Positions 12,196 through 30,780 of a stretch of 64,000 bases of DNA are shown piece after piece (positions within the stretch are counted from its first letter, which is position 1; each line of letters starts with the position of its first letter). The position numbers were made by a program, and so were the translations under genes. A model generated the notes under the pieces. It was not told where the DNA came from. It did no database searches and saw only the letters and a program-made list of their open reading frames with translations. Location: positions 3,286,001-3,350,000 of the forward strand of contig NZ_JAPEMA010000001.1 of NCBI RefSeq assembly GCF_026343185.1, given 5' to 3'. The DNA comes from Streptomyces sp. NBC_00091 (GTDB taxonomy: Bacteria > Actinomycetota > Actinomycetes > Streptomycetales > Streptomycetaceae).

Positions 12196-12387
12196 GGTGG
12201 GTCTCCAGGCCGTCGCAGCTTGTTACTTCGCGGAAGCTCAACGTAGCCCCTGGCTCTGACATCACGTCCGGGATTCGGTAAAACGTCCGGGAAGCATCAG
12301 GGGTTCCCGCCACACCTTCAGGTCAAGTTGCGTACGGATGGCCATGGTTCGCGGCGGTCTGTTGCGTTACGCGGGACCATGGGCGGT

Positions 12388-13143: not shown

Positions 13144-13554
13144 TCAGCTGCCGATGGAGCCGTTGCCCGACAGGATCGGGATGTTGCTGAGGATGTGCGA
13201 GAGCGCCTCGTCACCCTTGGCCTGGGTGGAGTTCTCGGTGCACTGCTGGTTCTGCGGGCTCGACAGGACGTTGATGTCCTGGACGCCGATGTTGAGCGCG
13301 GAGAGGACCGACTGGACGTTGACCTTCGCGGGCAGGCCGACGCAGGGCTTGTTGAGGGTGCCCTGGACCAGGCTGAGCTGGGGGCTCAGGTCGCCGGTGG
13401 TCTTCTGGTTGCCGTAGATCTGCTGGGCACCGTTGCCGTTGACGGTGTTGATCCCGTTGTCGTTGCCGATGGCCATGGCCGGGGCAGCAGCGGCAGCGCC
13501 CGCGCCGAGCGCAACGGCGGAGACCGCGGCAGCGGTCATGATCTTCTTGAGCAT
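13144..13554 (-). CDS. Rodlin (aerial-hypha rodlet protein), copy 1
   Basis: 136 residues from ATG 13554; AAAGGA is better spaced to this ATG than to the ATG at 13557. A signal peptide (about 1-28, ending AAPAMA) precedes IGNDNGINTVNGN. The C-terminal half SSPQNQQCTENSTQAKGDEALSHIL is the rodlin signature shared with RdlA/RdlB of S. coelicolor. Two cysteines (in NKPCVGLP and NQQCTEN) probably pair. Rodlins organise chaplin fibrils into the rodlet layer of hydrophobic aerial hyphae and spores. A second copy lies at 17149-17559, and the two upstream regions share conserved boxes at the same spacing. Confidence 0.93.
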   Translation of the reverse strand: MLKKIMTAAAVSAVALGAGAAAAAPAMAIGNDNGINTVNGNGAQQIYGNQKTTGDLSPQLSLVQGTLNKPCVGLPAKVNVQSVLSALNIGVQDINVLSSPQNQQCTENSTQAKGDEALSHILSNIPILSGNGSIGS

Positions 13555-13577
13555 CATTGATCCTTTTGTCGCACGAG

Positions 13578-13638
13578 TGCCCGCTAGTGGAGCGCCCTGA
13601 TCAACCGGGCCACCGCGGGGTTGGTTCCGCTGCTTCAC
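13578..13638 (-). promoter_or_regulatory. Rodlin copy 1 upstream boxes (shared with copy 2)
   Basis: Reading toward the gene: GTGAAG (13638-13633), 39 bp, then GCTCCACTAGCGGGCA (13593-13578), 23 bp before the ATG. Rodlin copy 2 has the same two boxes with the same 39-bp gap, plus a shared GTTGATC between them. Conservation in otherwise diverged DNA argues for a promoter or activator site; the sigma factor is not assigned. Confidence 0.6.
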
Positions 13639-13837
13639 TCAAACGGCCCGCCGGGGGTGGACTTTTCCCCAGCGTGGGTGAGGCCGCTCCGGACGCCTGC
13701 GCGAAGCCCGTACGCAGCCCCCAGGGCCCGGCCTCCCCGTTCAAGATCCTGTTGCGCTCCGTAGAAGGTGTTCGCACGGTGGGTGAGGAAGCGGATTGTT
13801 CCCGTCCGTTTTTGTGCGACCACCGAAGGAAGCCCCT

Positions 13838-14338
13838 ATGCACCGCACCAAGCCGTCCCGCCTCCGCGTCCTCGTCCCGTCGGCCCTCGCCGTCGTCATA
13901 CTGTCCGGCGCGGCCGCTCCCGCGAGCGCCGTGGACGGTGGCAGTGCCGCAGCCCTCGAGAAGCGGGCGGCTGCCGTGCAGGAGCAGATCGAGCGGATCG
14001 AGGAGATCGCGGCGGCCCCCGAACGGGCCCCGGCCGGTCCGATCGACGACCTCATCAACGGCCTCACCAAGACGCTCACGGACCTGCTGAAGTCCCTCAC
14101 GGGCCTGCTGCCCGCCGGGGTGACGCTGCCGCCGATCCAGCTGCCGAAGATCCCCGAGATCAAGCTGCCGGAGCTGCCCGGAGTGACCCTCCCGCCGATC
14201 AACCTCCCGGCGCTGCCGGGGCTGCCGGCCCCGGCCGTTCCGGCGGTCCCGCCGGCGAACGGGGTGGTCCCCGCCCTCCCGGCGATCCCCGAGATCCCCG
14301 ACATCCCCGACATCCCCGAGATTCCCATCCACCGCTAG
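13838..14338 (+). CDS. Secreted proline-rich hypothetical protein
   Basis: 166 residues from ATG 13838 with a clear signal peptide (SALAVVILSGAAAPASA, cleavage near residue 31). A short charged helix (LEKRAAAVQEQIERIEEIAAAPE) and an amphipathic stretch follow. The last ~75 residues are a quasi-periodic Pro/hydrophobic repeat (LPPIQLPKIPEIKLPELPG, later PEIPDIPDIPEIPI) with Pro about every third position. There are no cysteines and no anchor. It lies between a rodlin and a chaplin, so a structural coat role is plausible. No characterised family is recognised. Confidence 0.7.
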   Translation: MHRTKPSRLRVLVPSALAVVILSGAAAPASAVDGGSAAALEKRAAAVQEQIERIEEIAAAPERAPAGPIDDLINGLTKTLTDLLKSLTGLLPAGVTLPPIQLPKIPEIKLPELPGVTLPPINLPALPGLPAPAVPAVPPANGVVPALPAIPEIPDIPDIPEIPIHR

Positions 14339-14504
14339 GCGGCGGCAGCGGAGTCCAACGGACGGCATGGTTACGACTATTGGGCCGAACGGGTCTGATT
14401 CGGCTCCGATTCGGCCCGTGGCCGTGTCGTCCGGGAAGCTGGACCGTTTCGCTTCGTGTGAGCCCCGGATCGGGGCAGGACATCGAAGAGAAGGTGCACT
14501 CCCC

Positions 14505-14747
14505 ATGAACTCTGCTGCCAAGAAGGCCGCTGTGGCCCTGGCCTCCGCTGGTCTCGCTGTGGCCGGTGCCGCGGGCGCCGCCTCCGCCGACTCCTCGGCC
14601 GAGGGTGCGGCCGTGGGTTCCCCCGGTGTTCTCTCGGGCAACCTGGTCCAGGTCCCGGTGCACATCCCGATCAACGTTTGCGGCAACTCCGTGAACCTCG
14701 TCGGCGCGCTGAACCCCGCGTTCGGCAACGTCTGCATCAACGACTGA
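14505..14747 (+). CDS. Short chaplin
   Basis: 80 residues from ATG 14505 with an N-terminal signal (about 1-28). One chaplin domain follows: GSPGVLSGNLVQVPVHIPIN, then CGNSV and GALNPAFGNVC, with the conserved Cys59 and Cys77. Short chaplins self-assemble into amyloid-like fibrils that lower surface tension and coat aerial hyphae. It reads away from rodlin copy 1 and ends at a very strong hairpin. Which S. coelicolor short chaplin (ChpD-H) it corresponds to cannot be fixed by eye. Confidence 0.93.
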   Translation: MNSAAKKAAVALASAGLAVAGAAGAASADSSAEGAAVGSPGVLSGNLVQVPVHIPINVCGNSVNLVGALNPAFGNVCIND

Positions 14748-14768
14748 CGTACGTCGCAGTCGGCACAC

Positions 14769-14813
14769 ACGACTGTGGGCGCCCCCGGCATCGCCGGGGG
14801 CGCCCACAGTCGT
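14769..14813. terminator. Bidirectional terminator, 21-bp stem
   Basis: A perfect 21-bp stem (14769-14789 with 14793-14813) closes a 3-nt loop, between the chaplin stop (14747) and the convergent secreted-protein stop (14825). TCCGGGGCTTTT follows on the plus strand. Confidence 0.9.
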
Positions 14814-14824
14814 TCCGGGGCTTT

Positions 14825-15169
14825 TCAGTTGGCGCCGCCGTTGAGCTGCACTCCGCCGAGCATCGGGGAGAGCTTCGTCGCCCCGTTGGCCAGGCCCAGC
14901 ACCTCGCCGGGGGCGTTGTTGCGGATCTTGTTGACCCCCTGGGCGGTGCCGACGACCTTGTTGAGGGTTTCGCCCTGCTCGGCGAGGGCACTGCCCAGGG
15001 TCTCGGGGGCCGAGGCGATGACGGGTTCGACGGCGCTCAGCACCGTGTTCCATCCGGCCGACACGCTCATGGGGGGTCCTGCGGGAGCCTCGGCCGCGAA
15101 GGCGGGTGCCGTCGCACCAAGGGCGGCGACGGAGCCGGCGACGACAGCGGCGGCCTGGGAGAGCTTCAT
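14825..15169 (-). CDS. Small secreted hypothetical protein in coat locus
   Basis: 114 residues from ATG 15169. The signal peptide AAAVVAGSVAALGATAPAFA ends near residue 25. The mature part is ~90 residues without cysteines, rich in Val, Ala, Leu and Asn, with a likely amphipathic region SAGWNTVLSAVEPVIASAPETLGSAL-type. It is neither chaplin nor rodlin. The leader contains CAGAGGCGT (15197-15205, plus-strand orientation), also found before the chaplin at 16677. Location implies developmental co-expression. Function unknown. Confidence 0.7.
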   Translation of the reverse strand: MKLSQAAAVVAGSVAALGATAPAFAAEAPAGPPMSVSAGWNTVLSAVEPVIASAPETLGSALAEQGETLNKVVGTAQGVNKIRNNAPGEVLGLANGATKLSPMLGGVQLNGGAN

Positions 15170-15287
15170 TATCGAAAATCCTCTTCTTTTCGTGGACAGA
15201 GGCGTCAGCGGCGACCGTCGCGCCGCTTTCGACCTGGCTAACGATTCCCGGCCGATACGGAAACGCGTGTGCCGGGGCGCACGGCAG

Positions 15288-15321
15288 CGGCCGGAGAATC
15301 CGACAAGGGATTCTCCGGCCG
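15288..15321. terminator. Terminator downstream of sortase-type chaplin
   Basis: A perfect 14-bp stem (15288-15301 with 15308-15321) with a GACAAG loop, 30 bp beyond the minus-strand chaplin stop. Confidence 0.8.
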
Positions 15322-15350
15322 ATATTTCTTCTGATTACCGGTATTCCCGG

Positions 15351-16556
15351 TCAGGCGATCCGGGACCGCCGGTACAGAATCGCTCCGCCGAGGATCAGGG
15401 CCGAGGCGAGCGCCGCCGCGGCCGAGGTCTGGCCCGCTCCGGTCGCCGCCAGCTGCGGCGCCGTGGCGAGGGCGGGCGCGGGCGCGGGCGGCGCGGCTTC
15501 GGGAGCCGGGGCCGGGGCGGGCGCGGGAGCCGCGGGCAGGTGCACCGGGAGGTCACCGGCCGGGGCCGCCGGGGGCTGGTCGGCCGGGCGGACGACCTCC
15601 GGTACGGGGGCGGGCGCCGGAGCGGGCTGCTGCGGCTGGCTGCCGTGCGGCGGCCGGGGTGCCGGAGCCTCCGCGGCGGGCGGCAGGGCCTCGGGAGCCG
15701 GGGCCGGGGCGGGCTGCACCTCGGGCTGCGGGGCCGGGGCCGGGAGCGGGACGGGCGCCGGGAGCGTGTGCGGCTGCTCCTCGGGCTGCGGGGCCGGCTG
15801 CGGCGCGGGGGCCTCGGCCTCCGGCGTCTGCGGCGGGGGAGCGGGCGCCGGTGCCGGTACGGGAACGGGCGCGGGGGCCGGGGCGGGGAGCGGCGCCGGG
15901 TGCTCCGCGACGGGCTCCGGCTTCGGCCTGGGCTCCGGCTTCGGGTGCGGCCTGGGGGCGGGCGGTGCCGGGTGGGGCGCCGGGCGCTCGGCGTGGGGCG
16001 CGGGCTGCGGGGGGTGGTCGTCGCACTCCTCCTCGCCCTCGCCGGAGCCGCCGTAGCCGCCCTCGTCGCGGCCGTCCTCGTGCCGGGGCGCCGGTGCCGC
16101 GTGGCGCGGCGTCTCCTGGCGGGGCGCCGCGTGCCGGGGGGTGTGGGCGCGGGGCTCCTCGTAGCCCCGTTCCTCCTCCTGGCGCTGGCGGGGCAGTGCG
16201 TGCCGGCCGCCCTGCTGCTCGTCGAGGTAGCGCTCGAAGGCCTCGGCGTGCTCGGGGCTCAGGTAGCGGTGGTAGTCGTGGCCGGCGTCGGACGATCCGG
16301 TGGAGTTGACGCAGGTGTTCCCCATCGTGGGGTTGAGCGCCGCGCCCCCGTCCACGCTGTTGCCGCACAGGTTCGGTGCGAAGGTGATCGGTACCGAGAC
16401 GCTGTTGCCGGACACCACGCCCGGCGAATGCGAGGCCTCTGCCATCGCTCCGGGATGCGCGCAGGCCGCGCCGGTCGCGATCGACAGCAGGCTCGAGGCG
16501 GCCGCGGCCGTGAGCACTCCCTTGCCCAGTACCTGTCGGCTCAGTACCTGTCGCAT
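15351..16556 (-). CDS. Sortase-anchored long chaplin with a single chaplin domain
   Basis: 401 residues from ATG 16556, with AAGGA three bases upstream. A signal peptide (about 1-33) is followed by one chaplin domain (about 43-85, Cys64 and Cys82). Then come ~280 residues extremely rich in Pro, Ala and Glu, including a His/Arg-rich stretch and PAPAPAPV-type repeats. The C-terminus is a cell-wall sorting signal: LAATG at about 369-373, a hydrophobic helix and YRRSRIA. LAXTG is the motif of streptomycete class E sortases. Long chaplins ChpA-C of S. coelicolor carry two chaplin domains; this protein has one plus a long wall-spanning spacer. Confidence 0.9.
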   Translation of the reverse strand: MRQVLSRQVLGKGVLTAAAASSLLSIATGAACAHPGAMAEASHSPGVVSGNSVSVPITFAPNLCGNSVDGGAALNPTMGNTCVNSTGSSDAGHDYHRYLSPEHAEAFERYLDEQQGGRHALPRQRQEEERGYEEPRAHTPRHAAPRQETPRHAAPAPRHEDGRDEGGYGGSGEGEEECDDHPPQPAPHAERPAPHPAPPAPRPHPKPEPRPKPEPVAEHPAPLPAPAPAPVPVPAPAPAPPPQTPEAEAPAPQPAPQPEEQPHTLPAPVPLPAPAPQPEVQPAPAPAPEALPPAAEAPAPRPPHGSQPQQPAPAPAPVPEVVRPADQPPAAPAGDLPVHLPAAPAPAPAPAPEAAPPAPAPALATAPQLAATGAGQTSAAAALASALILGGAILYRRSRIA

Positions 16557-16601
16557 GGGTCCTTCCCTGTCTACCGGCGCGGGGGCCGGTGCTGAATCGA
16601 A

Positions 16602-16641
16602 GGTGGCCCCGGAGTGCACCGCCGTGCACTCCGAGGCCACC
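16602..16641. terminator. Terminator after short chaplin (16677 gene)
   Basis: GGTGGCC (16602) and CGGAGTGCAC (16610) pair with GTGCACTCCG (16624) and GGCCACC (16635), a 17-bp stem with one internal mismatch and a CGCC loop. It lies between the short chaplin stop and the start of the sortase-type chaplin, insulating two co-directional coat genes. Confidence 0.85.
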
Positions 16642-16676
16642 TCGAGGAGGTCTGCCCTTGCGGGCGCAGCGCTTCG

Positions 16677-16910
16677 TCAGGCGTTGACGCAGGTGTTGCC
16701 GAAGGCCGGGTTCAGCAGCGCGATGATGTCGACGGTGTTGCCGCAGACGTTGACCGGGACGTGCACGGGAACCTGGACGAGGTTGCCGGACAGGACGCCG
16801 GGGGAGTCCTTGGCGACACCGCCGGCCGTCGCGTCGGCCATGGCGGGGGAGGCGACACCGGCGGCCATCAGCGCGCCGGCGGCCAGCACCACTGCCTTCT
16901 TGTACTTCAT
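16677..16910 (-). CDS. Short chaplin
   Basis: 77 residues from ATG 16910. Signal peptide about 1-25 (AVVLAAGALMAAGVASPAMA), then one chaplin domain DSPGVLSGNLVQVPVHVPVN, with CGNTV and LLNPAFGNTC (Cys56 and Cys74). It closely resembles the chaplin at 14505, suggesting duplication, but is on the opposite strand. It has its own promoter space upstream and a hairpin downstream, so it is probably monocistronic. Confidence 0.93.
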   Translation of the reverse strand: MKYKKAVVLAAGALMAAGVASPAMADATAGGVAKDSPGVLSGNLVQVPVHVPVNVCGNTVDIIALLNPAFGNTCVNA

Positions 16911-17061
16911 TTGTTTTCGATCCTTCCCGCAGAGGCGTATCCGCTGCACAAATAACAACGAGTGGGTCCGGGAAAAGCAACCGCGAATTTCCGGGGGGTT
17001 CCGGTCAATTCACTCCGATGCTCCAGACGCAACCGACCGGGAATTCGGGCCCGGATTTAAA

Positions 17062-17132
17062 GGGCGCCCGGAATTTTCCGGGCGCCCGGCATGCGGCGAG
17101 GCCGCCGCGACCCGTGGGTGCGACGGCCTCGC
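17062..17132 (-). terminator. Two hairpins downstream of rodlin copy 2
   Basis: GCGAGGCCG/CGGCCTCGC (17096-17104 with 17124-17132) comes first after the rodlin stop. GGGCGCCCGG/CCGGGCGCCC (17062-17071 with 17078-17087, loop AATTTT) is next. Tandem terminators fit a very highly expressed gene. Confidence 0.75.
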
Positions 17133-17148
17133 TCGGCGCGGTGCGCGA

Positions 17149-17559: not shown

Positions 17560-17581
17560 TGCTGTCCCTTTTTTGCAGGAT

Positions 17582-17642
17582 TGCCCGGTACTGGAGCACC
17601 AGGATCAACGGCCCGGCCCTCGCTCGGGTTGCGTGACTTCAC
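17582..17642 (-). promoter_or_regulatory. Rodlin copy 2 upstream boxes
   Basis: GTGAAG (17642-17637), 39 bp, then GCTCCAGTACCGGGCA (17597-17582), 22 bp before the ATG: the same architecture as rodlin copy 1. The rest of the 17560-17910 gap holds no convincing gene; it is the shared divergent promoter region for rodlin 2 and the polysaccharide operon. Confidence 0.6.
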
Positions 17643-17910
17643 CCGGATGCCGCCGTTTCGGACGCCACGGTTGACGCTCAGGCGTTCACGCGGGCGCTGA
17701 CCGCGTTGCCGCCCGGCGCTGTCGGGGGAGCCGACGGCGCTTTTCCATATCGGTTCGAACAATGGTGCAACCACATAACGACCCGCCCACGGAGAGGGTG
17801 CGTGCCTTCGCCCAAAAGGCCGTACGAGCGAGTCCGACGTGATTTCCAGCCCGATTTCTGACAAAGTTCACTCCTGTTTTGTCCCCTTGATCGAAAATGG
17901 AGACAGGCTC

Positions 17911-19014
17911 ATGGGTTCCTCCCGCAGAATCCTCGGCACACTCGGCCTGCTGTCCTGCCTCACGCTTTCCGCACACGTCCCCGAGGCGGGCGCCGCGGCG
18001 CCCGCCGGAGTGCGTGAATTGCCCAGGGTGCCCTTCACCCAGCGCTACCAGGCCGTCCAGCACGGCGGGCTGGTCCGGGCCTCCAACTCCGCCATCAGCT
18101 GCCGCCGGGAGGAGTCCGACCAGGCCGAGCCGTGCGCCGAGGTCAAGAAGGGCGCCGCGGGGGTCAACGGCGACTTCGAGATGTTCTACGACGAGGTCGA
18201 CAAGGATCCGGACACCTACAACTCCACCCGGGCCGAGCTGAAGGTCCCGCAGGGCGCGAAGGTCTCGTACGCCCGTCTCTACTGGGGCGGGAACCTGCGG
18301 GTGGGGGAGCAGAAGCCGCCGCAGGACAACGGCCGGGTGCTGGTCTCCGAGCCCGGGGGCGCGTACAAGGCGGTGCTGGCCGACACCGTGATCGGGCACC
18401 ACACCGACGACGGCAGCGACGCCTACCAGGCCTCGGCCGATGTCACCCCGCTGGTGCGCAAGGGCGGCGCGGGGATGTGGACCGTGGCTCAGCTCAACGT
18501 CGCCATGGGGCATTCGGAGGTGGGCGCCTGGGGCGGGTGGACGCTGGTGGTCGCCTACGAGCACCCGCAGGAGCCGCTGCGCCGGATCTCGCTGTGGGAC
18601 GGCTTCGAGTCGCTGGCCGCCGGCGCCGGCGAGGCCGCCGGGGAGACGGTCGAGGTCACCGGCCTGGACGTGGCGCCCGGCGCCACGGGGCGGGCCGGAG
18701 TGGTCGCGTACGACGGGGACCGGGGGACCCTCGGTGACTCACTCACCGTGACCGCCGACAGTGGCCGCCGGGTCAACGTCAGCGATGCAGAAAATCCTTT
18801 TAATGATGTTATGAATTCCACGATCACGGAATTCGGACGTCCCTCGTTCGTGCGACAGCCCGAACATATGAATAATCTCGGATATGACGCGGACGTGTTC
18901 GACCTGAGTCCCGCCCTGTCCGGTGGCGCCCGCAGCCTGAGCTTCAGGTTCGCGGGTGAAAGTCAGGGTCAATTCCTCGGTGTGCTCTTCGTTCAGACAG
19001 ACGCGCGCCGCTGA
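17911..19014 (+). CDS. Secreted DUF3344-like protein heading the polysaccharide cluster
   Basis: 367 residues from ATG 17911. The signal peptide (about 1-30) ends near EAGAAAPAG. The body resembles DUF3344-type bacterial surface domains: AKVSYARLYWGGNL, VTPLVRKGGAGMWTVAQLNVAMG, GWTLVVAYEHPQEPLRRISLWDGFESL, then a C-terminal jelly-roll-like half ending LSFRFAGESQGQFLGVLFVQTD. No membrane anchor. It lies 19 bp before a glycosyltransferase start and probably opens the operon. A patch at 18785-18890 uses many AT-ending codons unlike its surroundings. It may bind or organise extracellular glycan; not demonstrated. Confidence 0.72.
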   Translation: MGSSRRILGTLGLLSCLTLSAHVPEAGAAAPAGVRELPRVPFTQRYQAVQHGGLVRASNSAISCRREESDQAEPCAEVKKGAAGVNGDFEMFYDEVDKDPDTYNSTRAELKVPQGAKVSYARLYWGGNLRVGEQKPPQDNGRVLVSEPGGAYKAVLADTVIGHHTDDGSDAYQASADVTPLVRKGGAGMWTVAQLNVAMGHSEVGAWGGWTLVVAYEHPQEPLRRISLWDGFESLAAGAGEAAGETVEVTGLDVAPGATGRAGVVAYDGDRGTLGDSLTVTADSGRRVNVSDAENPFNDVMNSTITEFGRPSFVRQPEHMNNLGYDADVFDLSPALSGGARSLSFRFAGESQGQFLGVLFVQTDARR

Positions 19015-19033
19015 ACGCAGGAGACCACTCCCC

Positions 19034-20236
19034 GTGCCGAAACACCCCTCGCCGGATCCGTCCCCGGCCGGCTACCCCTTCACCGTCCTCCACCTCGTCC
19101 AGCCCGTTGACGGGGGTGTCGCCCGCGTCGTCACCGACCTCGTACGGGCGCAGGCCGCCGCCGGGCTGCGGGTCATCGTCGGCTGCCCGCGCGGCGGCGC
19201 CCTCTCCGACGCCGCCCGGGCCGCCGGGGCCGAGGTGCGCACCTGGCGCGCCGGGCGGTCCCCCGGTCCCGGGCTGCCCGCCGAAGTCCTCGGCGCCGCC
19301 CGGCTGATCCGCCGCGCCCGCCCCGACCTGCTGCACGCCCACAGCGCCAAGGCGGGACTGGCCGGCCGGCTCGCCGTACGGGGCTCCGTGCCGACGGTGT
19401 TCCAGCCCCACGCCTGGTCCTTCGACGCCGTCGGCGGGGCCACCGCCGCGCTCGCGCTGCGCTGGGAGCGGGCCGGCGCCCGCTGGGCCGACCGGGTGCT
19501 CTGCGTCAGCGAGGCCGAACGCCGGGCCGGCGAATCCGAAGGGATCACCGCCCGCTGGTCGGTGATCCGCAACGGGGTCGACCTCGAACACTTCCGCCCC
19601 GCCCGGGGCGGCGGCGACCAGGGCCGCGCCGAGGCCCGGGCCGCACTCCCGCTGCCCGCCGCCCTGCGGGACGGGGGGCCGCTCGCCGTCTGCGTCGGCC
19701 GGCTCTGCCCGCAGAAGGGCCAGGACATCCTGCTGCGCGCCTGGCCCGAGGTGCTGGGCACCCTCCCCGACGCCCGCCTCGCCCTGGTCGGCGACGGCCC
19801 CGACGCCGAGCGGCTGCGTCGCACCGCACCGCCCGGGGTGCACTTCGCGGGCGCCGCCACCGACATCCGACCGTGGCTTCGGGCCGCCGATCTCGTTGTA
19901 CTGCCGTCGCGGTGGGAAGGCATGGCGCTCGCCCCGCTCGAAGCCATGGCCTGTGGCCGCCCGGTCCTGGTCTCCGACGTCAGCGGTGCCCGGGAGAGCC
20001 TGCCGTCCGGCCAGGGACGGCTCTGCCTGGTGCCACCGGAGGACCCGACGGCGCTGGCCAAGGCCCTGGGACGGCTGCTCGCCGAACCGCGGCTGCTCAC
20101 CGAACTCGGGGAGCAGGCCCAGCAGCACGCCCGGACGGAGTTCGACGTGCGGCGGACCACGGACGCGGTCACCGGCCTGTACCACGAACTGCTGGGCAGG
20201 CCCCGGCCCTTGAACCAGGAGCGCATCAGCCGATGA
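19034..20236 (+). CDS. GT-B glycosyltransferase (GT4 family)
   Basis: 400 residues from GTG 19034, with GCAGGAGA nine bases upstream. The N-terminal acceptor domain has VLHLVQPVDGGVARVVTDL and LLHAHSAKAGLAGRLA. The C-terminal donor domain has LCVGRLCPQKGQDILLRAW-like, LVGDGPDAERLR and the nucleotide-sugar motif LPSRWEGMALAPLEAMACG with the GT4 E-x7-E glutamates. It adds a sugar from an NDP or UDP donor to the growing lipid-linked repeat on the cytoplasmic face. Its TGA overlaps the next ATG (ATGA), so the genes are translationally coupled. Confidence 0.87.
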   Translation: MPKHPSPDPSPAGYPFTVLHLVQPVDGGVARVVTDLVRAQAAAGLRVIVGCPRGGALSDAARAAGAEVRTWRAGRSPGPGLPAEVLGAARLIRRARPDLLHAHSAKAGLAGRLAVRGSVPTVFQPHAWSFDAVGGATAALALRWERAGARWADRVLCVSEAERRAGESEGITARWSVIRNGVDLEHFRPARGGGDQGRAEARAALPLPAALRDGGPLAVCVGRLCPQKGQDILLRAWPEVLGTLPDARLALVGDGPDAERLRRTAPPGVHFAGAATDIRPWLRAADLVVLPSRWEGMALAPLEAMACGRPVLVSDVSGARESLPSGQGRLCLVPPEDPTALAKALGRLLAEPRLLTELGEQAQQHARTEFDVRRTTDAVTGLYHELLGRPRPLNQERISR

Positions 20237-21759: not shown

Positions 21760-21761
21760 GC

Positions 21762-23147
21762 ATGAGCCTCGCCGCAACCGGATCCCCGCGTCCGGTCGAC
21801 CTCGGCCCGCTGCGCCGGCACTGGCCGCTGCTGCCGCTCGCCGCGACCGTCCTGTTCCTCCTCGCCCCGCTCCCGGCGGGCGACGCGACCGCCTCCGGCA
21901 AGGTCGGCCCCGCCGACGCCGCCTCCCTGCTGCTCGCCCTCGTCTGCGGGGTCCAGGCCCTGCGCGGCCGGGTGCGGACGCTGACCCCGCTGGGCGTCCT
22001 CGTCCTCGGAGCCCCCGGCGTCGGGCTCGCGGTGGCCACGATGACCGCCGGGGACCCGTACGCCGCCCTGCCCGGCTTCGTCCGCTACCTCCAGGTCTTC
22101 GTACTGGTCCCGGCGGCCGTGGTGCTGCTGGTGCGCGACGCCCGCGAGTTCCGGCTGGCCGCCGGGTGCTTCGTGGTGCTCGCGCTGGTGCAGGGAGCGG
22201 TGGGGGTCGTGCAGTACGCGACCCACACCGGGGCCTCGTACCAGGGCGAGAACGTCCGGGCCGTGGGCACCTTCGGCCCCGGCGACGTGATGGGCATGGC
22301 CACCGTCGTCGCGTACGGGCTGGTCGTCGCCACCGCCGCCGCGCTCGCGCCCGCGCTCCCGAAGCGGGTCCGGCGGATCGCCGGGGGCTGCGCCCTGGCG
22401 CTGGTGCTGCCGCTGGTGCTGTCCTTCAGCCGCGGCGCCTGGATCGCCACCTTCGGGGCGGCGGTGCTGGTGATGGCCATGGCCGGGATCCGGCGGGCCC
22501 TGCGGGTGCTGGTCGCGCTGGCCGCCGTGGGCGTGGTGCTGGTCGGCGGGCTCGGGGTGGGCTCCGAGATGGTCGCGGAGCGGCTGACCTCGATCACCCA
22601 GGTCTCCAGCGCCCCCGACCAGTCGGTGACCGACCGCTACACGATGTGGGCCGCCGCCGAGTCGATGTGGCGGGAGCGGCCGGCGGTGGGGGTGGGCCTC
22701 AAGGGCTTCCCCGCCCACCGGGACGGGCACTCCTCGCTGGGGCTGTCCTCCGGCAGCGACACCGCCGGCGCAGGCCAGGCCTTCATCAAGCAGCCGCTGC
22801 TGTCCCCGCACAACATGTACCTGCTCATCCTCAGCGAGCAGGGCCTGACCGGCCTGCTCGCGCTGGCGGGCGGCTGGGCCGCGCTGCTGGTCGCCGGCCT
22901 GCGGCGGTGCGCCGTCGGGACCGACCCGGGGATCCGGGACTGCGGGCTGATCGCCACCGGGCTGTTCGTGTGGCAGCTGACCGATTTCCTGTACGCGGAC
23001 ATCGGCGGGCCCTCCACCGTGCTCACCGGGGTGATCATCGGACTCGCGGCGTGGTGGGCCCTGCCCTCCGGGGGCTTCGCGGCCCGGGCGGACTCCTCCC
23101 CTTCCTCCTTCGGCGGCCCGGCCGCTGAGGGGCCGGCCCCCCGGTGA
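21762..23147 (+). CDS. O-antigen ligase/polymerase-like membrane protein
   Basis: 461 residues from ATG 21762, two bases after the previous stop. About ten or more hydrophobic segments are visible. A large extracellular loop around residues 270-350 (SVTDRYTMWAAAESMWRERPAVGVGLKGF through SPHNMYLLILSEQGLTGLLAL) carries the PHN.yL motif of the WaaL/Wzy family. In a Gram-positive this would polymerise repeat units or ligate them to an acceptor outside the membrane. Its TGA overlaps the next GTG. Confidence 0.85.
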   Translation: MSLAATGSPRPVDLGPLRRHWPLLPLAATVLFLLAPLPAGDATASGKVGPADAASLLLALVCGVQALRGRVRTLTPLGVLVLGAPGVGLAVATMTAGDPYAALPGFVRYLQVFVLVPAAVVLLVRDAREFRLAAGCFVVLALVQGAVGVVQYATHTGASYQGENVRAVGTFGPGDVMGMATVVAYGLVVATAAALAPALPKRVRRIAGGCALALVLPLVLSFSRGAWIATFGAAVLVMAMAGIRRALRVLVALAAVGVVLVGGLGVGSEMVAERLTSITQVSSAPDQSVTDRYTMWAAAESMWRERPAVGVGLKGFPAHRDGHSSLGLSSGSDTAGAGQAFIKQPLLSPHNMYLLILSEQGLTGLLALAGGWAALLVAGLRRCAVGTDPGIRDCGLIATGLFVWQLTDFLYADIGGPSTVLTGVIIGLAAWWALPSGGFAARADSSPSSFGGPAAEGPAPR

Positions 23148-25162: not shown

Positions 25163-25928
25163 CACCGACACGGCGCCCGCCGCCGTGACGGGCCCCGCCC
25201 GCCGGACCGCATCCCCGTGGGTCCTGATGTACCACTCGGTCGCCGAGTTCACCGACCCCGCCGAGGACCCGTACGGGATCACCGTCACCCCGGGCGCCCT
25301 GGAAGCCCAGCTGCTGTGGCTGCGCGCCCGGAAACTGCGCGGGGTCGGGGTCGGCGAACTGCTGCGGGCCCGCGCGGCCGGAAAGGGCCGCGGGCTCGTC
25401 GGACTCACCTTCGACGACGGCTACACCGACTTCCTGACCCGCGCCCTGCCCCTGCTGCGCCGCCACGACTGCACGGCCACCCTCTTCGTACTGCCGGGGC
25501 GGCTCGGCGTGGACAACGTGTGGGACCCGCTGGGCCCGCGCAAATCCCTGCTCACCGCCGAGCAGATCCGCGAAGTCGCCGCCGCCGGACAGGAGATCGG
25601 CTCGCACGGGCTGCTCCACCAGGACCTCACCGCCGCACCCGACGACGTACTCCAACAGGAGCTGCGCGGCAGCCGCGACCTGCTGCGCGAACTCACCGGC
25701 ACCCTGCCCGAGGGGTTCTGCTACCCGTACGGGCACCTCGACGCCCGGGTCGTCGAAGCCACCCGCGCCGCCGGCTACGACTACGCCTGCGCGATCTCCC
25801 CCGGGCGGCTCGCGGGCCGCCACGCCCTGCCCCGCACCCACGTCAGCCAGGCCGACGGCCCCGCACGGCTGCGCGTCAAGCAGCTGCGCCACCAGGTGCG
25901 CGAGCTGCGCAGGAAGGTACTGCGGTGA
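25152..25928 (+). CDS. Polysaccharide deacetylase (CE4, NodB domain)
   Basis: 258 residues from ATG 25152, overlapping the flippase by 11 bp. The NodB core is complete: TFDDGY with Asp88-Asp89, then the metal His pair SHGLLHQDL (His152 and His156), and FCYPYG. CE4 enzymes remove N-acetyl groups from GlcNAc-type sugars. No signal peptide or membrane anchor is visible, so it probably acts on a cytoplasmic, lipid-linked or nucleotide-linked intermediate. This hints that the polymer contains an N-acetylated amino sugar that becomes cationic. Confidence 0.85.
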   Translation: MSADTDTAPAAVTGPARRTASPWVLMYHSVAEFTDPAEDPYGITVTPGALEAQLLWLRARKLRGVGVGELLRARAAGKGRGLVGLTFDDGYTDFLTRALPLLRRHDCTATLFVLPGRLGVDNVWDPLGPRKSLLTAEQIREVAAAGQEIGSHGLLHQDLTAAPDDVLQQELRGSRDLLRELTGTLPEGFCYPYGHLDARVVEATRAAGYDYACAISPGRLAGRHALPRTHVSQADGPARLRVKQLRHQVRELRRKVLR

Positions 25929-27283
25929 AGGACGTCAAGGCCCTGCACATCATCACCGGGCTCGGCGTCGGCGGCGCCGAACAGCAACTGCGGCTGCTGC
26001 TGCGGCACATGCCGATGCGCTGCGACGTGCTGACGCTCACCAACCCCGGGCCGGTGGCCGAGGGGCTGCGGGCCGACGGGGTCCGCGTCGTGCACCTGGG
26101 CATGCGGGGCAACCGCGACCTGGGCGCGCTGCCGAGGCTGGTGCGGTTCGTCCGGCGCGGCCGCTACGACCTGGTCCACACGCACCTGTACCGGGCCTGC
26201 GTCTACGGGCGCCTCGCGGCCCGGCTCGCCGGGGTGGGGGCCACGGTGGCCACCGAACACTCCCTGGGCGAGGGCGAGATCGAGGGCCGGCCGCTGACCC
26301 GCGGGGTACGGGCCCTGTACCTGGCGAGCGAGCGGCTCGGCGCGGCCACGGTCGCGGTGTCCGACACCGTCGCCGCCCGGCTGGAGGCGTGGGGGGTGCC
26401 CGCCGCCCGGGTGCACGTGGTCCCGAACGGGATCGAGGCCGTCCGCTTCCGCTTCGACGAGGGCGTGCGCCGCGCCACCCGGGCCCGGACCGGGCTGCCG
26501 GAACGGGCCTTCGTGGTGGGCGGGGTCGGGCGCCTGGTGCCGGGCAAGCGGTTCGACGTACTCGTCAGGGCGGTCGCGGCACTGCCGGGCGCACACCTGC
26601 TGCTGGCCGGGGACGGCCCCGAACGGGCCGCGCTGCGGCTGCTCGCCGCCGAACTGGGCGCGCAGAGCCGGATCCACCTGCTGGGCGAGCGGGACCCGCT
26701 GGGCGACAGCGCCGACGGGCGCACCCCCGGGATCCCCGCCCTGCTGGCCGCCATGGACGTCTTCGTGTCCCCATCGCGGGAGGAGGCCTTCGGGCTCGCC
26801 GTCGTCGAGGCGCTGGCCGCCGGGCTGCCGGTGCTGCACGTCACCTGCCCCGCCATCGACGACCTCCCCGCCACGCAGGCGCCGGGGGCGCGGAGGATCG
26901 GCACGGGCACGGAGGAACTGGTCGCCGCGCTGCGCGGGCACATGGAGGCGGGCGCGCGCCGGCTGCCGCCACCGCCGGTGGTGCGGCGGTACGACATCGC
27001 GCGCAGCGCGCGGCAGCTGCTCGACGTCTACGCCCTTGCGCTGGCCGCGCCGGTACCGGGGCCGCCCGTGGGCCCCGGGCCCGAGGCGGCTCCGGCTCCT
27101 GCGGGGTCGGCGCCTGCGGCGGGGCCGCGGGGCTCCGCCCCGGACCCCGCGCCTCAAACGCCGGCGGGGCTGGATTCGGCTGGGCCCGGCTGCGCCGGCG
27201 CCGGCCGGGAGTCCGCGCCCCCAAATCCGGCGGGGCTGGATGTGGCTGAGCCCGGCTCCGTTGGCGCCGGGGGCAGCGGCTGA
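25925..27283 (+). CDS. GT-B glycosyltransferase (GT4) with repeat-derived C-terminal tail
   Basis: 452 residues from GTG 25925 (GTGA overlap). The N-terminus LHIITGLGVGGAEQQLRLLL and the donor domain VGGVGRLVPGKRFDVLVRAV, LLLAGDGPERAAL and SPSREEAFGLAVVEALAAGLPV define a GT4 enzyme. The core ends near residue 375. The last ~70 residues (PGPEAAPAPAGSAP onward) are low-complexity and encoded by a dispersed-repeat-like sequence (27127-27272). The tail is therefore probably an accidental extension rather than a domain. Confidence 0.87.
   Translation: MKDVKALHIITGLGVGGAEQQLRLLLRHMPMRCDVLTLTNPGPVAEGLRADGVRVVHLGMRGNRDLGALPRLVRFVRRGRYDLVHTHLYRACVYGRLAARLAGVGATVATEHSLGEGEIEGRPLTRGVRALYLASERLGAATVAVSDTVAARLEAWGVPAARVHVVPNGIEAVRFRFDEGVRRATRARTGLPERAFVVGGVGRLVPGKRFDVLVRAVAALPGAHLLLAGDGPERAALRLLAAELGAQSRIHLLGERDPLGDSADGRTPGIPALLAAMDVFVSPSREEAFGLAVVEALAAGLPVLHVTCPAIDDLPATQAPGARRIGTGTEELVAALRGHMEAGARRLPPPPVVRRYDIARSARQLLDVYALALAAPVPGPPVGPGPEAAPAPAGSAPAAGPRGSAPDPAPQTPAGLDSAGPGCAGAGRESAPPNPAGLDVAEPGSVGAGGSG
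27127..27272. repeat. Streptomyces intergenic-type repeat overlapping a glycosyltransferase 3' end
   Basis: The stretch beginning GGGGCTCCGCCCCGGACCCC and CGCGCCTCAAACGCCGGCGG looks like a dispersed element usually seen between Streptomyces genes. Two imperfect ~57-bp units are visible (about 27148-27204 and 27214-27271), each ending in GGCTGG/GGCTGA-GCCCGGCT and an inverted GCGCCGG. Here the element is translated. Confidence 0.6.
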
Positions 27284-27356
27284 TCACGATCCACACCCCC
27301 GGCCAGGGGAACGGCCGGGTCGTACGAACTCCCCTCCACCCAGGAAGGCACCGCAC

Positions 27357-28052
27357 ATGGCCGACACCGCCGACCAGAAGAAGTCCGACCACCGCTCGGA
27401 GAAGAAGCGCCGGCTCCCGCGGCCGCCCGCGTGGTGGCCGTTGCCCGCCTGCGCCCTGCTCGGGCTGGCCGCGGGCGGGGCGTACGGGGTGCTCAAGGCC
27501 CCCGAGTACGCCGCCACCAGCTACGTCGTCGCCGTACCGAACGAGACCACCGAACCGGCGACCGCCCTCGGCTTCGCCCAGGCCTACGGCCGGATCGCGA
27601 CCAGCAGCTCCACCCTCGCCTACGCCCAGCCGCGCGCGGGCATCGACGCCCGGCAGCTGCGCACCCAGGTCCGCGCCGAGACCTCCCCCGACTCCCCGAT
27701 GATCGCCATCACCGGGACCTCCACGAGTGCCTCCGAGGCCGCCGACATCGCCAACGCCGTCGCCGACGCCCTCTCGCTGAGCAGCAACCAGGCCGCGAAG
27801 AACACCGGTGTGCAGCTGCTGCTGTTCAACCAGGCCGTCGCGCCGAGCGACCCCGCCTCCCCGTCCGCCCCCGTCAGCGGCGCCGTCGGGCTGTGCGCGG
27901 GCGGGCTCCTCGGCGGGCTGTGGATGCTCGCCCGGCCCGCCCGCCGCAAGGAGGAGAAGGAGGAGGAGTCCCACCCGGCGGTGGAGGAGTACCCCTCGCT
28001 GCCCGCCCAGGGTGAGCACTCCGAGACCAAGGAGAAGGAGTCGGTGCGATGA
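27357..28052 (+). CDS. Wzz/YveK-like polysaccharide co-polymerase (chain-length type)
   Basis: 231 residues from ATG 27357 with AGGAAGG nine bases upstream. A basic cytoplasmic tail precedes TM1 (WWPLPACALLGLAAGGAYGVL). An extracellular domain of ~130 residues (YAATSYVVAVPNETTEPATALGFAQAYGRI onward) leads to TM2 (VSGAVGLCAGGLLGGLWML). A charged C-terminus follows with no kinase domain. The topology matches Wzz/CapA-type proteins that set chain length. Its stop overlaps the next ATG. Confidence 0.75.
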   Translation: MADTADQKKSDHRSEKKRRLPRPPAWWPLPACALLGLAAGGAYGVLKAPEYAATSYVVAVPNETTEPATALGFAQAYGRIATSSSTLAYAQPRAGIDARQLRTQVRAETSPDSPMIAITGTSTSASEAADIANAVADALSLSSNQAAKNTGVQLLLFNQAVAPSDPASPSAPVSGAVGLCAGGLLGGLWMLARPARRKEEKEEESHPAVEEYPSLPAQGEHSETKEKESVR

Positions 28053-29191
28053 CGCATGGCTCCACCGGGGCCCTGTCGGTGACGCTGTGCCGAGACCCCC
28101 GGCAGTTCGCCGCGCTGGAGGAGTCCTGGAACCGGCTGCTCCGGAGCTGTCCCACCGCCACCCCCTTCCAGAGCCACGCCTGGCTGCACTCCTGGTGGCT
28201 GTCGTACGGGAAGGACGGCCGGCTCCGGGTCCTGCTCGTGCGGCGCGGCGAGGAGCTGGTCGGCGCGGCCGCGCTGATGCTCGTACACCGGCCGCTGCCG
28301 CGGCTGGTGCCGCTCGGCGGCGGGATCACCGACTACTTCGACGTGCTCGTCGCCTCCGAGCACGCCGCCCAGGTCGTGCCCGCCCTGGCCAACGGGCTGC
28401 ACCGGGCCGCCCGCAGCGCCGTCGTCGACCTGCGCGAGGTCCGGCCGGGGGCCGTCGCCGAGGAGGTGTACGCGGCGTGGCCCGGGGTGAGCAGCAGGCT
28501 CACCGACTCCACCTGCATGGAGCTGCCCGCGCTGCCGTTCGACGAGCTCGTCAAGCGGATGCCGGCCTCGGGCGCCCAGCGGGTGCGGGCCAAGCTGCGC
28601 AAGACCGACGCCGCCGGGATCGAGGAGCGCGAGGTCACCGAGCGGGAGGTGCCGCAGGCCGTACGGACCCTGCTGCGGCTCCACGAGAAGCAGTGGCGCG
28701 GTCGCGGGGTGACCCCCGAACACCTCAAGCCGCGCTTCGCCGAGCACCTGACCCGGGCCACCCGGCGGATGGTGCGGGCCGGGGAGGGCCGGCTGACGGA
28801 GTTCCGGCTGGACGGGAAGGTGGTGGCGGCCAACGTCACCCTGCTGTCCGCCGCGCTGAGCGGCGGCTACCTGTACGGCGCCGATCCGGACCTGCGGGAG
28901 CGGAAGGTGGACGTGGCGACGCTGCTGCTGCGCTACGAGGCGGGCCGGGCCCTCGCGGAGGGCCGGCCGGTGGTGAGCTTCCTGCGCGGCAACGAGCCGT
29001 ACAAGAACCACTGGCGGCCCGAGACGGTGGTCAACCAGCGGCTGCTGCTGGCCACGCACGCGCTCGCGCCCCTGCTGCGGCTGCACGAGTCGCAGGTCAC
29101 GGGGCGCGAGCGGGCGGTGGACGCGCTGCGCGAGGCGCTGCCGGCCGCCCGGGACTGGCGGGCGCGGCTGAACGAACTGCGGGTGCGATGA
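28049..29191 (+). CDS. GNAT/FemAB-type acyltransferase (BioF2-like, CelD-like)
   Basis: 380 residues from ATG 28049 (ATGA overlap). Two tandem GNAT-like halves are expected in this family; the second carries KTDAAGIEEREVTE, LLRLHEKQWRGRGVTPEHLK and GGYLYGADPDLRERKVDVATLLLRYEAGRAL. EPYKNHWRPE near the end is typical of the BioF2/CelD group in polysaccharide clusters. It is cytoplasmic and may acylate a sugar or lipid-linked intermediate. It ends the plus-strand run 5 bp before the convergent GH26 stop. Confidence 0.82.
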   Translation: MTHGSTGALSVTLCRDPRQFAALEESWNRLLRSCPTATPFQSHAWLHSWWLSYGKDGRLRVLLVRRGEELVGAAALMLVHRPLPRLVPLGGGITDYFDVLVASEHAAQVVPALANGLHRAARSAVVDLREVRPGAVAEEVYAAWPGVSSRLTDSTCMELPALPFDELVKRMPASGAQRVRAKLRKTDAAGIEEREVTEREVPQAVRTLLRLHEKQWRGRGVTPEHLKPRFAEHLTRATRRMVRAGEGRLTEFRLDGKVVAANVTLLSAALSGGYLYGADPDLRERKVDVATLLLRYEAGRALAEGRPVVSFLRGNEPYKNHWRPETVVNQRLLLATHALAPLLRLHESQVTGRERAVDALREALPAARDWRARLNELRVR

Positions 29192-29196
29192 CCCGA

Positions 29197-30780
29197 CTAG
29201 AAGGGCCAGAAGCCGGAGTCCTCGCCCCAGTCGAAGCGGACGCAGACCGTCTGGTTGCCGACGAGTGCGTTCAGCCACTCGCCGAAGTTGAGCGGGACGC
29301 ACCACTGCCTGCTGTTGTTGGGCTGGGGCTTCGGTTCGGGCTTCGGCTGGGGCTGGGGCTGGGGCTTGGGCGCCAGCGGGCTCGGGGACGGGGACGCGGG
29401 TGCGGGGACCGAGACCTCCGGGGAGGGCGCCGGCGGGAGCACGGGCGGCACCGAGACCTCGGGGGAGGGGACGACGGGCGAGGGCGCGACGGGCGACGGG
29501 CTGACGGGCTCGGGGACGACCGGGGTGGGCTCGACGGGCGTGGGGTCGACCGGGGTGGGTTCCACCGGGGTCGGTTCGACCGGCGGGACCGAGACCTCGG
29601 GGCTCGGGGTCGGGGTGGGCGTCGGCACCTGCGGCGCCGGTGCGACCGGCGGGACGGAGGCCTCGGGCGTCGGGAACTTCGGCGTCGGCACGACCGGCGC
29701 GGGCCCGACCGGCGACGGGATGACGGGCGTGGGGGTCACGGGCACGGGGGTCACGGGCGCGGGGGTCACCGGGGTCGGGGCCACCGGCGTCGGTTCGACC
29801 GGTTCCTGCCCGGCCAGCGCCTCGCGGAAGACCTTCGCCGACTGCGGGTTCTGCTTGCACCGCCAGACGCCGTGCGGGCAGTAGTCGGTGATGGTGTGGT
29901 AGAGCGGCTTGTGCTGCTCGATCCACTTCAGCATGCGTCGTACGTACTCCGGGTTGTCCCCGTTGCGGAACAGCCCCCACTCCGGGTACGAGATCTCCTT
30001 GCCGTGTGCTTTCGCGAAGTCGACTTGCTGCTGGAGCCCGTACGGCTGGCTGACGTGGTCCTCGAAGGTCCGGCCGGGCCCCTGGTCGTACGAATCCATG
30101 CCGATGACGTCGACCACGTCGTCGCCCGGGTAGCACTTGGTCCAGGCGATCGCGTCCGTCCCCCGGTTGGGGGCGAAGTCGAACTTGAACTCCTGCCCGG
30201 ACACGGAGCGCATCGTGTTGACGACACGCCTCCAGTACGCCTTCCAGTGCTCCGGGTCGGGCCCGCACCGGTGGGTGTACGTGGTGCCGTTCATCTCCCA
30301 GCCGAGCACGATCACCGTGTCCGGCACGCCCAGGGCCACCAGCCGCTCGGCGAGCTTGCGGAAGTGCCGGTCGTACTGGCCCTCCGCGCCGGCCCGGATC
30401 AGCTGGGCCACCTGCCAGTCGGGCACCCGGTCCTCGTTGCGGGCCTGCATGGGCACGTTGAGCACGAACATCCGGTCGTCCTCGGCCCGGCGCCACTCGG
30501 CCCAGTCCGCGAGGAAGTTCACGTCGCCCTCGACGCCCGCCCACTGGTCGCCGGGCAGGTAGGTGTGCCCGACCCGGATCTCCCTGCCGCCCAGCCAGTG
30601 CGACAGGTACGGGATCCGGGCGACCCCGGGCGGCCCGTAGCCGAGGTAGGCGCCCATGGCGATGTCGGAGCCCCGCGGCGCCTCGTCGTCCGGGGCGGCG
30701 AGCGCGGCGCCCGTGGCGAGCAGCCCGGCCGTGACCGTACCGACGCAGGTGCTCACCAGTCGGTGGCGGGGTCTGGGCAT
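29197..30780 (-). CDS. Secreted GH26-like glycoside hydrolase with Pro/Thr-rich linker
   Basis: 527 residues from ATG 30780 with a signal peptide (about 1-29). The catalytic TIM barrel (about 40-330) has VIVLGWEMNG (acid/base Glu162) and KEISYPEWGLF (nucleophile Glu267), as in GH26 mannanase-like enzymes. Residues ~335-480 are a PTPV/PSPEVSVPP repeat linker. The C-terminus is a ~40-residue Trp- and Cys-containing module (QWCVPLNFGEWLNALVG to SGFWPF) of unknown binding role. It reads toward the polysaccharide operon, so it may trim or release that polymer. Confidence 0.82.
   Translation of the reverse strand: MPRPRHRLVSTCVGTVTAGLLATGAALAAPDDEAPRGSDIAMGAYLGYGPPGVARIPYLSHWLGGREIRVGHTYLPGDQWAGVEGDVNFLADWAEWRRAEDDRMFVLNVPMQARNEDRVPDWQVAQLIRAGAEGQYDRHFRKLAERLVALGVPDTVIVLGWEMNGTTYTHRCGPDPEHWKAYWRRVVNTMRSVSGQEFKFDFAPNRGTDAIAWTKCYPGDDVVDVIGMDSYDQGPGRTFEDHVSQPYGLQQQVDFAKAHGKEISYPEWGLFRNGDNPEYVRRMLKWIEQHKPLYHTITDYCPHGVWRCKQNPQSAKVFREALAGQEPVEPTPVAPTPVTPAPVTPVPVTPTPVIPSPVGPAPVVPTPKFPTPEASVPPVAPAPQVPTPTPTPSPEVSVPPVEPTPVEPTPVDPTPVEPTPVVPEPVSPSPVAPSPVVPSPEVSVPPVLPPAPSPEVSVPAPASPSPSPLAPKPQPQPQPKPEPKPQPNNSRQWCVPLNFGEWLNALVGNQTVCVRFDWGEDSGFWPF

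What the first reader, a model, noticed from the sequence alone, without database searches (positions are those of the whole stretch)
13144..30780. Contiguous rodlin-chaplin coat locus joined to a complete exopolysaccharide pathway
Seen: two rodlins, two short chaplins, one sortase chaplin and two unknown secreted proteins occupy 4.4 kb. Only ~350 bp later a nine-gene, mostly stop-start overlapped operon encodes initiating transferase, two GTs, polymerase/ligase-like, flippase, deacetylase, Wzz-like and acyltransferase, headed by a secreted DUF3344-like protein and faced by a secreted GH26. Known: chaplins and rodlins coat aerial hyphae and chaplin fibrils attach to cell-wall glycans. Inference: the polymer may be the glycan partner of the fibrils, making this one surface-assembly system.
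Basis: partly seen in the sequence, partly recalled or inferred. Interest (0 to 1): 0.75.

Follow-up and report, generated by a model that had tools for sequence, protein, structure and literature searches.

The report
Streptomyces spore-coat and polysaccharide gene island
A soil bacterium keeps the genes for its water-repellent aerial coat next to genes that build and trim an unstudied surface sugar polymer, and many related species keep similar neighbours, which suggests, but does not prove, that the two form one surface.

Summary
In detail: two rodlins, two short chaplins, a sortase-type chaplin and two unnamed secreted proteins (13144-17559), then 351 bp on a nine-gene Wzy-type polysaccharide operon (17911-29191) with a convergent GH26 gene. 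The operon's acyltransferase is in 103 of 150 Streptomyces genomes; of 70 of these read over up to 40 kb, 70 keep GH26 and 60 have a chaplin in the tile. Adjacency is conserved, but mostly as inherited synteny: tyrosinase genes, a P450 and VKOR travel too, rodlins and operon do not co-occur (p = 0.84), and chaplin adjacency changes about five times on the tree. The promoter motif shared by chaplins and rodlins is not enriched at the operon (0 of 69 heads at the strict cut-off); two of its three arrangements have their own element. So 'one surface-assembly system' is partly supported: neighbours yes, shared sigma-BldN control no. Best reading: an old Streptomyces surface locus whose operon makes a heteropolysaccharide for the hyphal or spore surface, trimmed by GH26. 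Side finding: the VKOR oxidase beside the rodlin is an extra copy in all 33 genomes that have one there, and chaplins and rodlins nearly always carry two cysteines. No paper listed by our searches treats this operon. Function is untested.

The parts
12388..13026 (+). VKOR-family disulfide oxidoreductase (CLWC motif), extra paralogue linked to the coat locus
   Evidence: PF07884 139 bits for the longer ORF 12328-13026; motif; copy-number test
13144..13557 (-). rodlin 1
   Evidence: sequence NDNGINTVNGN, two Cys in the protein
13838..14338 (+). secreted Pro/Leu-rich protein of unknown family (secY in scripts)
   Evidence: no Pfam match; 10 of 70 tiles, 9 of them type A
14505..14747 (+). short chaplin
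   Evidence: PF03777 97.2 bits
14825..15169 (-). secreted 114-aa protein of unnamed family (secX), with a moderate sigma-BldN-like site
   Evidence: 77 relatives, the named ones from Streptomyces; upstream site 10.4, 7 of 300 shuffles as high
15351..16556 (-). sortase-type chaplin, one chaplin domain
   Evidence: PF03777 57.4 bits, LAATG then hydrophobic tail
16677..16910 (-). short chaplin
   Evidence: PF03777 101.7 bits
17149..17559 (-). rodlin 2
   Evidence: sequence; used as query, relatives in 111 of 150 genomes
17604..17633 (-). sigma-BldN-like promoter of rodlin 2 (CGCAACCC-N14-CCGTTGAT)
   Evidence: score 18.9, 0 of 300 shuffles as high
17677..17750 (-). scar of a third short chaplin, mostly deleted, that 8 of 10 close relatives keep here
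   Evidence: alignment with G001
17811..17890 (+). conserved operon-specific upstream element; core TCTGACAAAGTTCACTCC at 17857-17874
   Evidence: core with up to 3 mismatches in 13 of 13 type A, 14 of 14 type C, 1 of 33 type B loci and G101; genome-wide near-unique
17911..19014 (+). secreted DUF3344-like protein, first gene of the operon here, absent from many relatives
   Evidence: 36 of 70 tiles
19034..20236 (+). GT4 glycosyltransferase
   Evidence: PF13692 131 bits
20233..21759 (+). initiating polyprenyl glycosylphosphotransferase
   Evidence: PF02397 206 bits, TIGR03025 over cut-off
21762..23147 (+). Wzy-like polymerase / O-antigen ligase family
   Evidence: PF04932 66 bits
23144..25162 (+). 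MurJ-family flippase
   Evidence: PF03023 206 bits
25152..25928 (+). polysaccharide deacetylase
   Evidence: PF01522 96 bits; nearest solved relatives include PgaB
25925..27283 (+). GT4 glycosyltransferase
   Evidence: PF13439 89 bits
27357..28052 (+). Wzz-like chain-length protein without kinase
   Evidence: weak TIGR01006 match
28049..29191 (+). Acetyltransf_6 acyltransferase, the marker gene used in the survey
   Evidence: PF13480 86 bits
29197..30780 (-). secreted GH26 glycosidase facing the operon
   Evidence: PF02156 29 bits; motifs GWEMN in 70 of 70 and PEWG-type in 69 of 70 relatives, the miss being a wrong-strand ORF picked for G013

Best explanation
This is the S. lavendulae/virginiae-group form of an old Streptomyces surface locus. 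Shown by sequence: coat proteins (chaplins, rodlins) beside one operon whose products fit starting, extending, flipping, polymerising, deacetylating and acylating a lipid-linked oligosaccharide, with a secreted GH26 facing it. Inferred: the operon makes a heteropolysaccharide of short repeats (one initiating transferase plus two GT4 enzymes suggest about three sugars), exported by the MurJ-family flippase, polymerised outside and laid on hyphae or spores; GH26 trims or loosens it. Chaplin and rodlin amyloids assemble at the same surface. Their genes have kept company because both serve the aerial or spore surface, but they are switched on by different promoters. Stepwise likelihood: operon makes an extracellular or surface polysaccharide 0.9; GH26 acts on that polymer 0.7; the polymer belongs to the aerial or spore surface together with chaplins 0.5; it physically holds chaplin fibrils 0.2.
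For: Domains fit a Wzx/Wzy-type pathway. MurJ, deacetylase, GT4b, Wzz, acyltransferase and GH26 are in 70 of 70 loci (the acyltransferase by choice of loci); first GT4 and phosphotransferase in 68, Wzy in 67, two misses of each being cut contigs. Chaplin in 60 of 70 tiles; a random 40-kb window would hold one in about 4% of cases, from roughly 9 chaplin matches per 8.5-Mb genome (arithmetic). The type C operon lies near a chromosome end in several genomes (G006 7.10 of 7.24 Mb, the two rodlins listed for it 0.9 Mb away; G066 8.17 of 8.52 Mb) yet keeps a chaplin and GH26. In print, a chaplin-glycan link exists for another polymer (CslA; passages of PMC5972031), and Wzx/Wzy clusters with a glycosidase gene shape spore-bearing structures in Actinoplanes (passages of PMC13390465 and PMC12691653).
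Against: No enrichment of the chaplin/rodlin promoter motif at the operon: 0 of 69 heads at 12.5. Rodlin and operon presence unrelated. All 150 genomes have chaplins but only 103 the operon. 8 loci with full flanks have the operon and no chaplin. Tyrosinase genes (53 of 70) and a P450 (30 of 70) also travel with the operon, and all 14 type C loci keep both, so synteny does not single out chaplins. In 6 genomes of three other genera (one of them a weak match) no chaplin hit shares a contig with the acyltransferase relative, though the contigs are drafts. Type A and C are one clade, so the cases are not independent.
Confidence: 0.5

Rival explanations
1. Neighbours by inheritance only: the operon makes a general capsule or biofilm polymer unrelated to the coat, and a block of surface genes has simply stayed together.
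For: Tyrosinase, P450, VKOR, ATP-grasp and FAD genes share the block; architecture follows the tree with 8 changes; own promoter element in types A and C; rodlins and operon occur independently.
Against: In the S. globisporus/anulatus group (type C), of the surveyed neighbours only chaplin, tyrosinase genes, P450 and GH26 lie with the operon; rodlins, VKOR, ATP-grasp, FAD and DUF3344 are 0 of 14; 60 of 70 loci keep a chaplin.
Confidence: 0.35
2. Spore-release matrix as in Actinoplanes: the operon makes a matrix round spores or spore chains and the GH26 later digests it.
For: GH26 linked in 70 of 70 loci with conserved catalytic motifs; the Actinoplanes imp cluster plus GimA/GimB hydrolases (GH5 shown next to imp), and wps-1 with a GH26 gene, are reported to matter for normal sporangia (passages).
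Against: Streptomyces has no sporangium (general knowledge); the timing of the GH26 gene is unknown; GH26 also fits trimming during export.
Confidence: 0.25
3. Wall-linked glycopolymer (teichuronic-like) or anchor for sortase-fixed chaplins rather than a free exopolysaccharide.
For: A sortase chaplin lies in the locus; MurJ-family flippase and WcaJ/WbaP-like initiation are compatible.
Against: No LCP-type ligase among the Pfam matches of the operon proteins scanned; the rest of the window and the genome were not searched for one.
Confidence: 0.15

Closest known systems
S. coelicolor chpG-chpF ... chpA-chpD region (SCO2699-SCO2717)
   Same: Tags chpG SCO2699, chpF SCO2705, chpA SCO2716 and chpD SCO2717 are in print (PMC5650626 passages); that rdlA and rdlB follow as SCO2718-2719 is recalled. 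Our genomes G093, G119, G134 and G137 show chaplin, melC2, melC1, chaplin, operon, GH26, ATP-grasp, long chaplin, chaplin, two rodlins, so the operon is predicted to be about SCO2706-SCO2714.
   Different: The S. coelicolor sequence itself was not read here. The window has the rodlin-chaplin set upstream of the operon, no melC match in the window, and a DUF3344 gene first.
Actinoplanes missouriensis wps-1 and imp clusters
   Same: Wzx/Wzy-type cluster with a GH26 gene (wps-1) or an adjacent GH5 gene (imp), reported needed for normal sporangia (passages of PMC13390465 and PMC12691653). The former says that, to its authors' knowledge, no Wzx/Wzy cluster involving GH26 had been characterised.
   Different: wps-1 has sulfotransferases; genus and most other genes differ; chaplins were searched for only in the second paper, where the word does not occur.
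CslA/GlxA and MatAB polymers of Streptomyces
   Same: Extracellular glycans; the CslA polymer helps anchor chaplin fimbriae (PMC5972031 passages).
   Different: Those are synthase-type systems (general knowledge); this is an oligosaccharide-lipid, Wzy-type operon.
Bacillus subtilis TasA/BslA with the eps operon
   Same: Amyloid and hydrophobin with a polysaccharide in one surface (PMC5618241 passages).
   Different: Different protein families; there TasA and eps are both under Spo0A, here no shared promoter motif was found.

Membership tests
Wzx/Wzy-dependent polysaccharide cluster | initiating phosphotransferase, glycosyltransferases, Wzy polymerase, chain-length protein | tested here: met
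   the Wzz match is weak and under its cut-off
Wzx/Wzy-dependent polysaccharide cluster | Wzx-family flippase | tested here: not met
   flippase is MurJ family, PF03023 206 bits; Polysacc_synt only 22 bits, under its cut-off. It works like such a cluster but is not a strict member by this feature
Chaplin | PF03777 domain over cut-off | tested here: met
   three genes
Rodlin | homology to RdlA/RdlB | tested here: inconclusive
   no Pfam model hits; named from the recalled NDNGIN motif and small secreted form; relatives in 111 of 150 genomes
GH26 | profile match and both catalytic glutamates | tested here: met
   which glutamates are catalytic is recalled; activity not testable here
sigma-BldN regulon (operon) | BldN-type promoter upstream | tested here: not met
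   0 of 69 heads at 12.5, 1 at 11.3, 5 at 10 against about 5 expected; the motif was learned here, its name is recalled
sigma-BldN regulon (coat genes) | BldN-type promoter upstream | tested here: inconclusive
   94 of 179 chaplins and 46 of 101 rodlins at 12.5 against 50 of 1420 random stretches, but the motif was learned on these upstreams; in the window one of seven coat genes has a strong site
XrtA/PEP-CTERM polysaccharide loci | scores over the XrtA-specific model cut-offs | tested here: not met
   TIGR03088, 03013, 03097 and 03006 all under cut-off

The most novel reading that the evidence does not exclude
The locus is a self-contained coat-assembly island: chaplins and rodlins, a dedicated extra VKOR that drives formation of their single disulfide, and a polysaccharide operon plus GH26 that builds and remodels the layer on which they assemble. 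The locus VKOR would explain why chaplin cysteines matter in vivo though not in vitro.
Probability: 0.25. Interest if true: 0.75.

Novelty: new variant of a known kind. Interest (0 to 1): 0.5.

Why it matters
Chaplin and rodlin layers are textbook features of Streptomyces, yet the carbohydrate side of the aerial surface is less known. A polysaccharide operon kept beside coat genes in most of the operon-bearing genomes examined gives a named set of genes to delete. The linked extra VKOR makes a standing puzzle testable: cysteines of ChpH were reported to matter for fibrils in vivo although the disulfide is not needed in vitro (PMC5618249 passages).

Tried and rejected
Common regulation by sigma-BldN: looked for and not found. 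Because the start sites in those two calls were rough, I repeated it with starts set by alignment; same result. Regular-expression scans of 69 operon upstreams for recalled sites (found against expected): WhiG 0/0.0, sigma-BldN 0/0.2, MtrA 0/0.0, BldD 3/0.1, looser BldD 9/2.9, WhiI-BldM 1/0.1, BldM 10/2.6, WhiA 37/27.5, SigE 1/0.8, SigR 1/0.6, AdpA 48/55.4. On the better-placed regions the BldM excess vanished (14 against 12.9), BldD was 2 against 0.4 (two close sisters) and WhiI-BldM 1 against about 0. So developmental control by other regulators is neither shown nor excluded. DUF3344 structure: a 13-row alignment gave mean pLDDT 50 and no interpretable match, so no function is claimed. Chaplin tree to test whether the type C chaplin is the chpF or chpG copy: 54 columns, unresolved, and all type C chaplins were dropped by my filter because of longer tails; their ChpG-like tail was seen by eye and the melC neighbours by search. 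XrtA-type polysaccharide locus: rejected on cut-offs. Independent recruitment of a chaplin in type C: rejected as unneeded, because a chaplin next to melC lies in the type B block too.
Full report
What is there. A third short chaplin that 8 of the 10 closest type A relatives read have between the last rodlin and the DUF3344 gene is a scar in the window.

How common. Among 150 genomes drawn from the genus, chaplins are in 150, rodlins in 111, the operon's acyltransferase at E <= 1e-40 in 103 (105 at E <= 0.001) and the DUF3344 protein at E <= 1e-40 in 55 (62 at E <= 0.001). Rodlin and operon presence are independent (77/34/26/13, p 0.84). Genomes with the operon have slightly more chaplin matches (mean 9.3 of 103 genomes against 8.0 of 47, Mann-Whitney p 0.011, not corrected for kinship).

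Neighbourhood. I read up to 40 kb round the acyltransferase in 70 of the 103 genomes. A phmmer and profile survey gives: GH26, MurJ, deacetylase, second GT4, Wzz and acyltransferase 70 of 70; first GT4 and phosphotransferase 68; Wzy 67; chaplin 60; melC2 and melC1 53; ATP-grasp 44; rodlin 42; DUF3344 36; FAD protein 35; VKOR 33; P450 30. Three arrangements: A, rodlin-chaplin set upstream, as in the window (13); B, operon with a chaplin on one or both sides and mostly rodlins downstream (33; rodlins in 29); C, operon then chaplin, melC2, melC1, P450 and GH26, no rodlin in the tile (14); 10 without a chaplin, two of them cut by a contig end. In the 60 with a chaplin it lies 0-4.1 kb from the operon edge by a crude ORF-edge measure. 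A FastTree of three concatenated proteins puts A and C in one clade, needs 8 changes of arrangement and 5 of chaplin adjacency, and forbids treating the 60 as independent. Eighty named loci (the best 80 of 518) show type C in the S. globisporus, anulatus and microflavus group and place the window's group with S. virginiae, lavendulae and avidinii; their 10-kb flanks are too short to see the type A chaplins. Outside Streptomyces six of the genomes sampled in the order have a relative of the acyltransferase (one of them weak); no chaplin hit shares its contig in any, though the contigs are drafts.

Control of expression. A two-box motif learned from 108 non-redundant chaplin and rodlin upstreams is CGtaACC, about 13 bases, GCGTTGA. 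Three of six starting guesses, some chosen from recall and, reached it with a mean score of 21-22 over the best 60% of sequences, one reached a near form (19.7), two went to other motifs (14.8, 15.6); shuffled input gave 11-12. It agrees with the sigma-BldN consensus as I recall it, and chaplins and rodlins are reported sigma-BldN targets (PMC4125116 passages). Window included, it scores 12.5 or more in 94 of 179 chaplin, 46 of 101 rodlin and 5 of 18 secX regions, 50 of 1420 random stretches, and 0 of 69 operon heads. With starts set by alignment the operon heads give 0 of 69 at 12.5, 1 at 11.3 and 5 at 10, no more than chance (random 2.6%, 4.5% and 7.5%). In the window the site at 17633-17604(-) serves rodlin 2; the other six coat genes score 11.3 or less. 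The operons of types A and C share another element, TCTGNCAAAGTKCAYTYC, found with up to 3 mismatches in all 27 such loci, the window, G101 and one type B locus. Of 14 whole genomes searched with one mismatch allowed, 11 have it at the operon, one of them with a second site elsewhere, and three have none. So these operons have their own switch, of unknown regulator.

The VKOR. The gene at 12388-13026 lies 117 bp from rodlin 1. In the 70 genomes, 33 have a VKOR in the tile, and all 33 have at least two VKOR matches in the genome; of the other 37, 7 have two or more and 30 have one or none (Fisher 2e-13; matches at E <= 0.001, fragments counted). Chaplin domains near the operon have two cysteines in 165 of 167 parsed and rodlins in 67 of 68 parsed. 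Among 18 genomes without a strong acyltransferase hit but with two or more VKOR matches, chosen for that, 5 have a full-length VKOR within 3 kb of a chaplin, one a partial match, 12 none (the chaplin list was truncated; one of the five, G082, carries DUF3344 beside it). S. coelicolor's studied VKOR is SCO1507, outside the chaplin tags named above (PMC10433416 passages), and the coelicolor-like genomes G093, G119, G134 and G137 lack a locus VKOR, so this part is not universal.

Literature. Searches: SCO2705-SCO2716 tags (1 and 9 papers), chaplin with rodlin and exopolysaccharide (10), chaplin with glycosylphosphotransferase (0), chaplins with glycosyltransferase and polysaccharide (98, of which 20 listed), chaplin with disulfide or VKOR (53, of which 12 listed; 11, of which 10 listed, by title on human genetics or medicine). 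Among the papers listed I saw none that, by title, abstract start or the passages I opened, treats this operon or VKOR and chaplins; most were seen as listings only, and supplements could not be opened. SCO2713 appears as a control RNA (PMC9130861 passage). The library is open-access only, so this is a limited negative. Papers were seen as search listings, abstract starts, or passages, never whole.

Verdict. Real, well conserved, and undescribed in what I could search; the physical link with chaplins is firm, the functional link is plausible but rests on synteny, and shared sigma-BldN control is not supported by the promoter data.

Noticed in passing
12388-13026: VKOR beside rodlin 1 is an extra genomic copy linked to coat genes; candidate oxidase of chaplin and rodlin cysteines.
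   Followed up: partly
17677-17750: Scar of a third short chaplin that relatives such as G001 keep intact between rodlin 2 and DUF3344.
   Followed up: yes
17811-17890: Operon-specific conserved upstream element of unknown regulator, shared by types A and C.
   Followed up: partly
38549-39802: Cytochrome P450 (PF00067) whose relative lies between melC1 and GH26 in type C loci, so it travels with the operon in types A and C.
   Followed up: partly
14825-15169: Unnamed secreted 114-aa family, seen only in Streptomyces among named hits, with sigma-BldN-like sites upstream in some relatives; possible new coat component.
   Followed up: partly
54501-55403: Nucleotidyl transferase (PF00483), by its start a GalU-like sugar-nucleotide enzyme (recalled likeness), 25 kb from the operon.
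   Followed up: no
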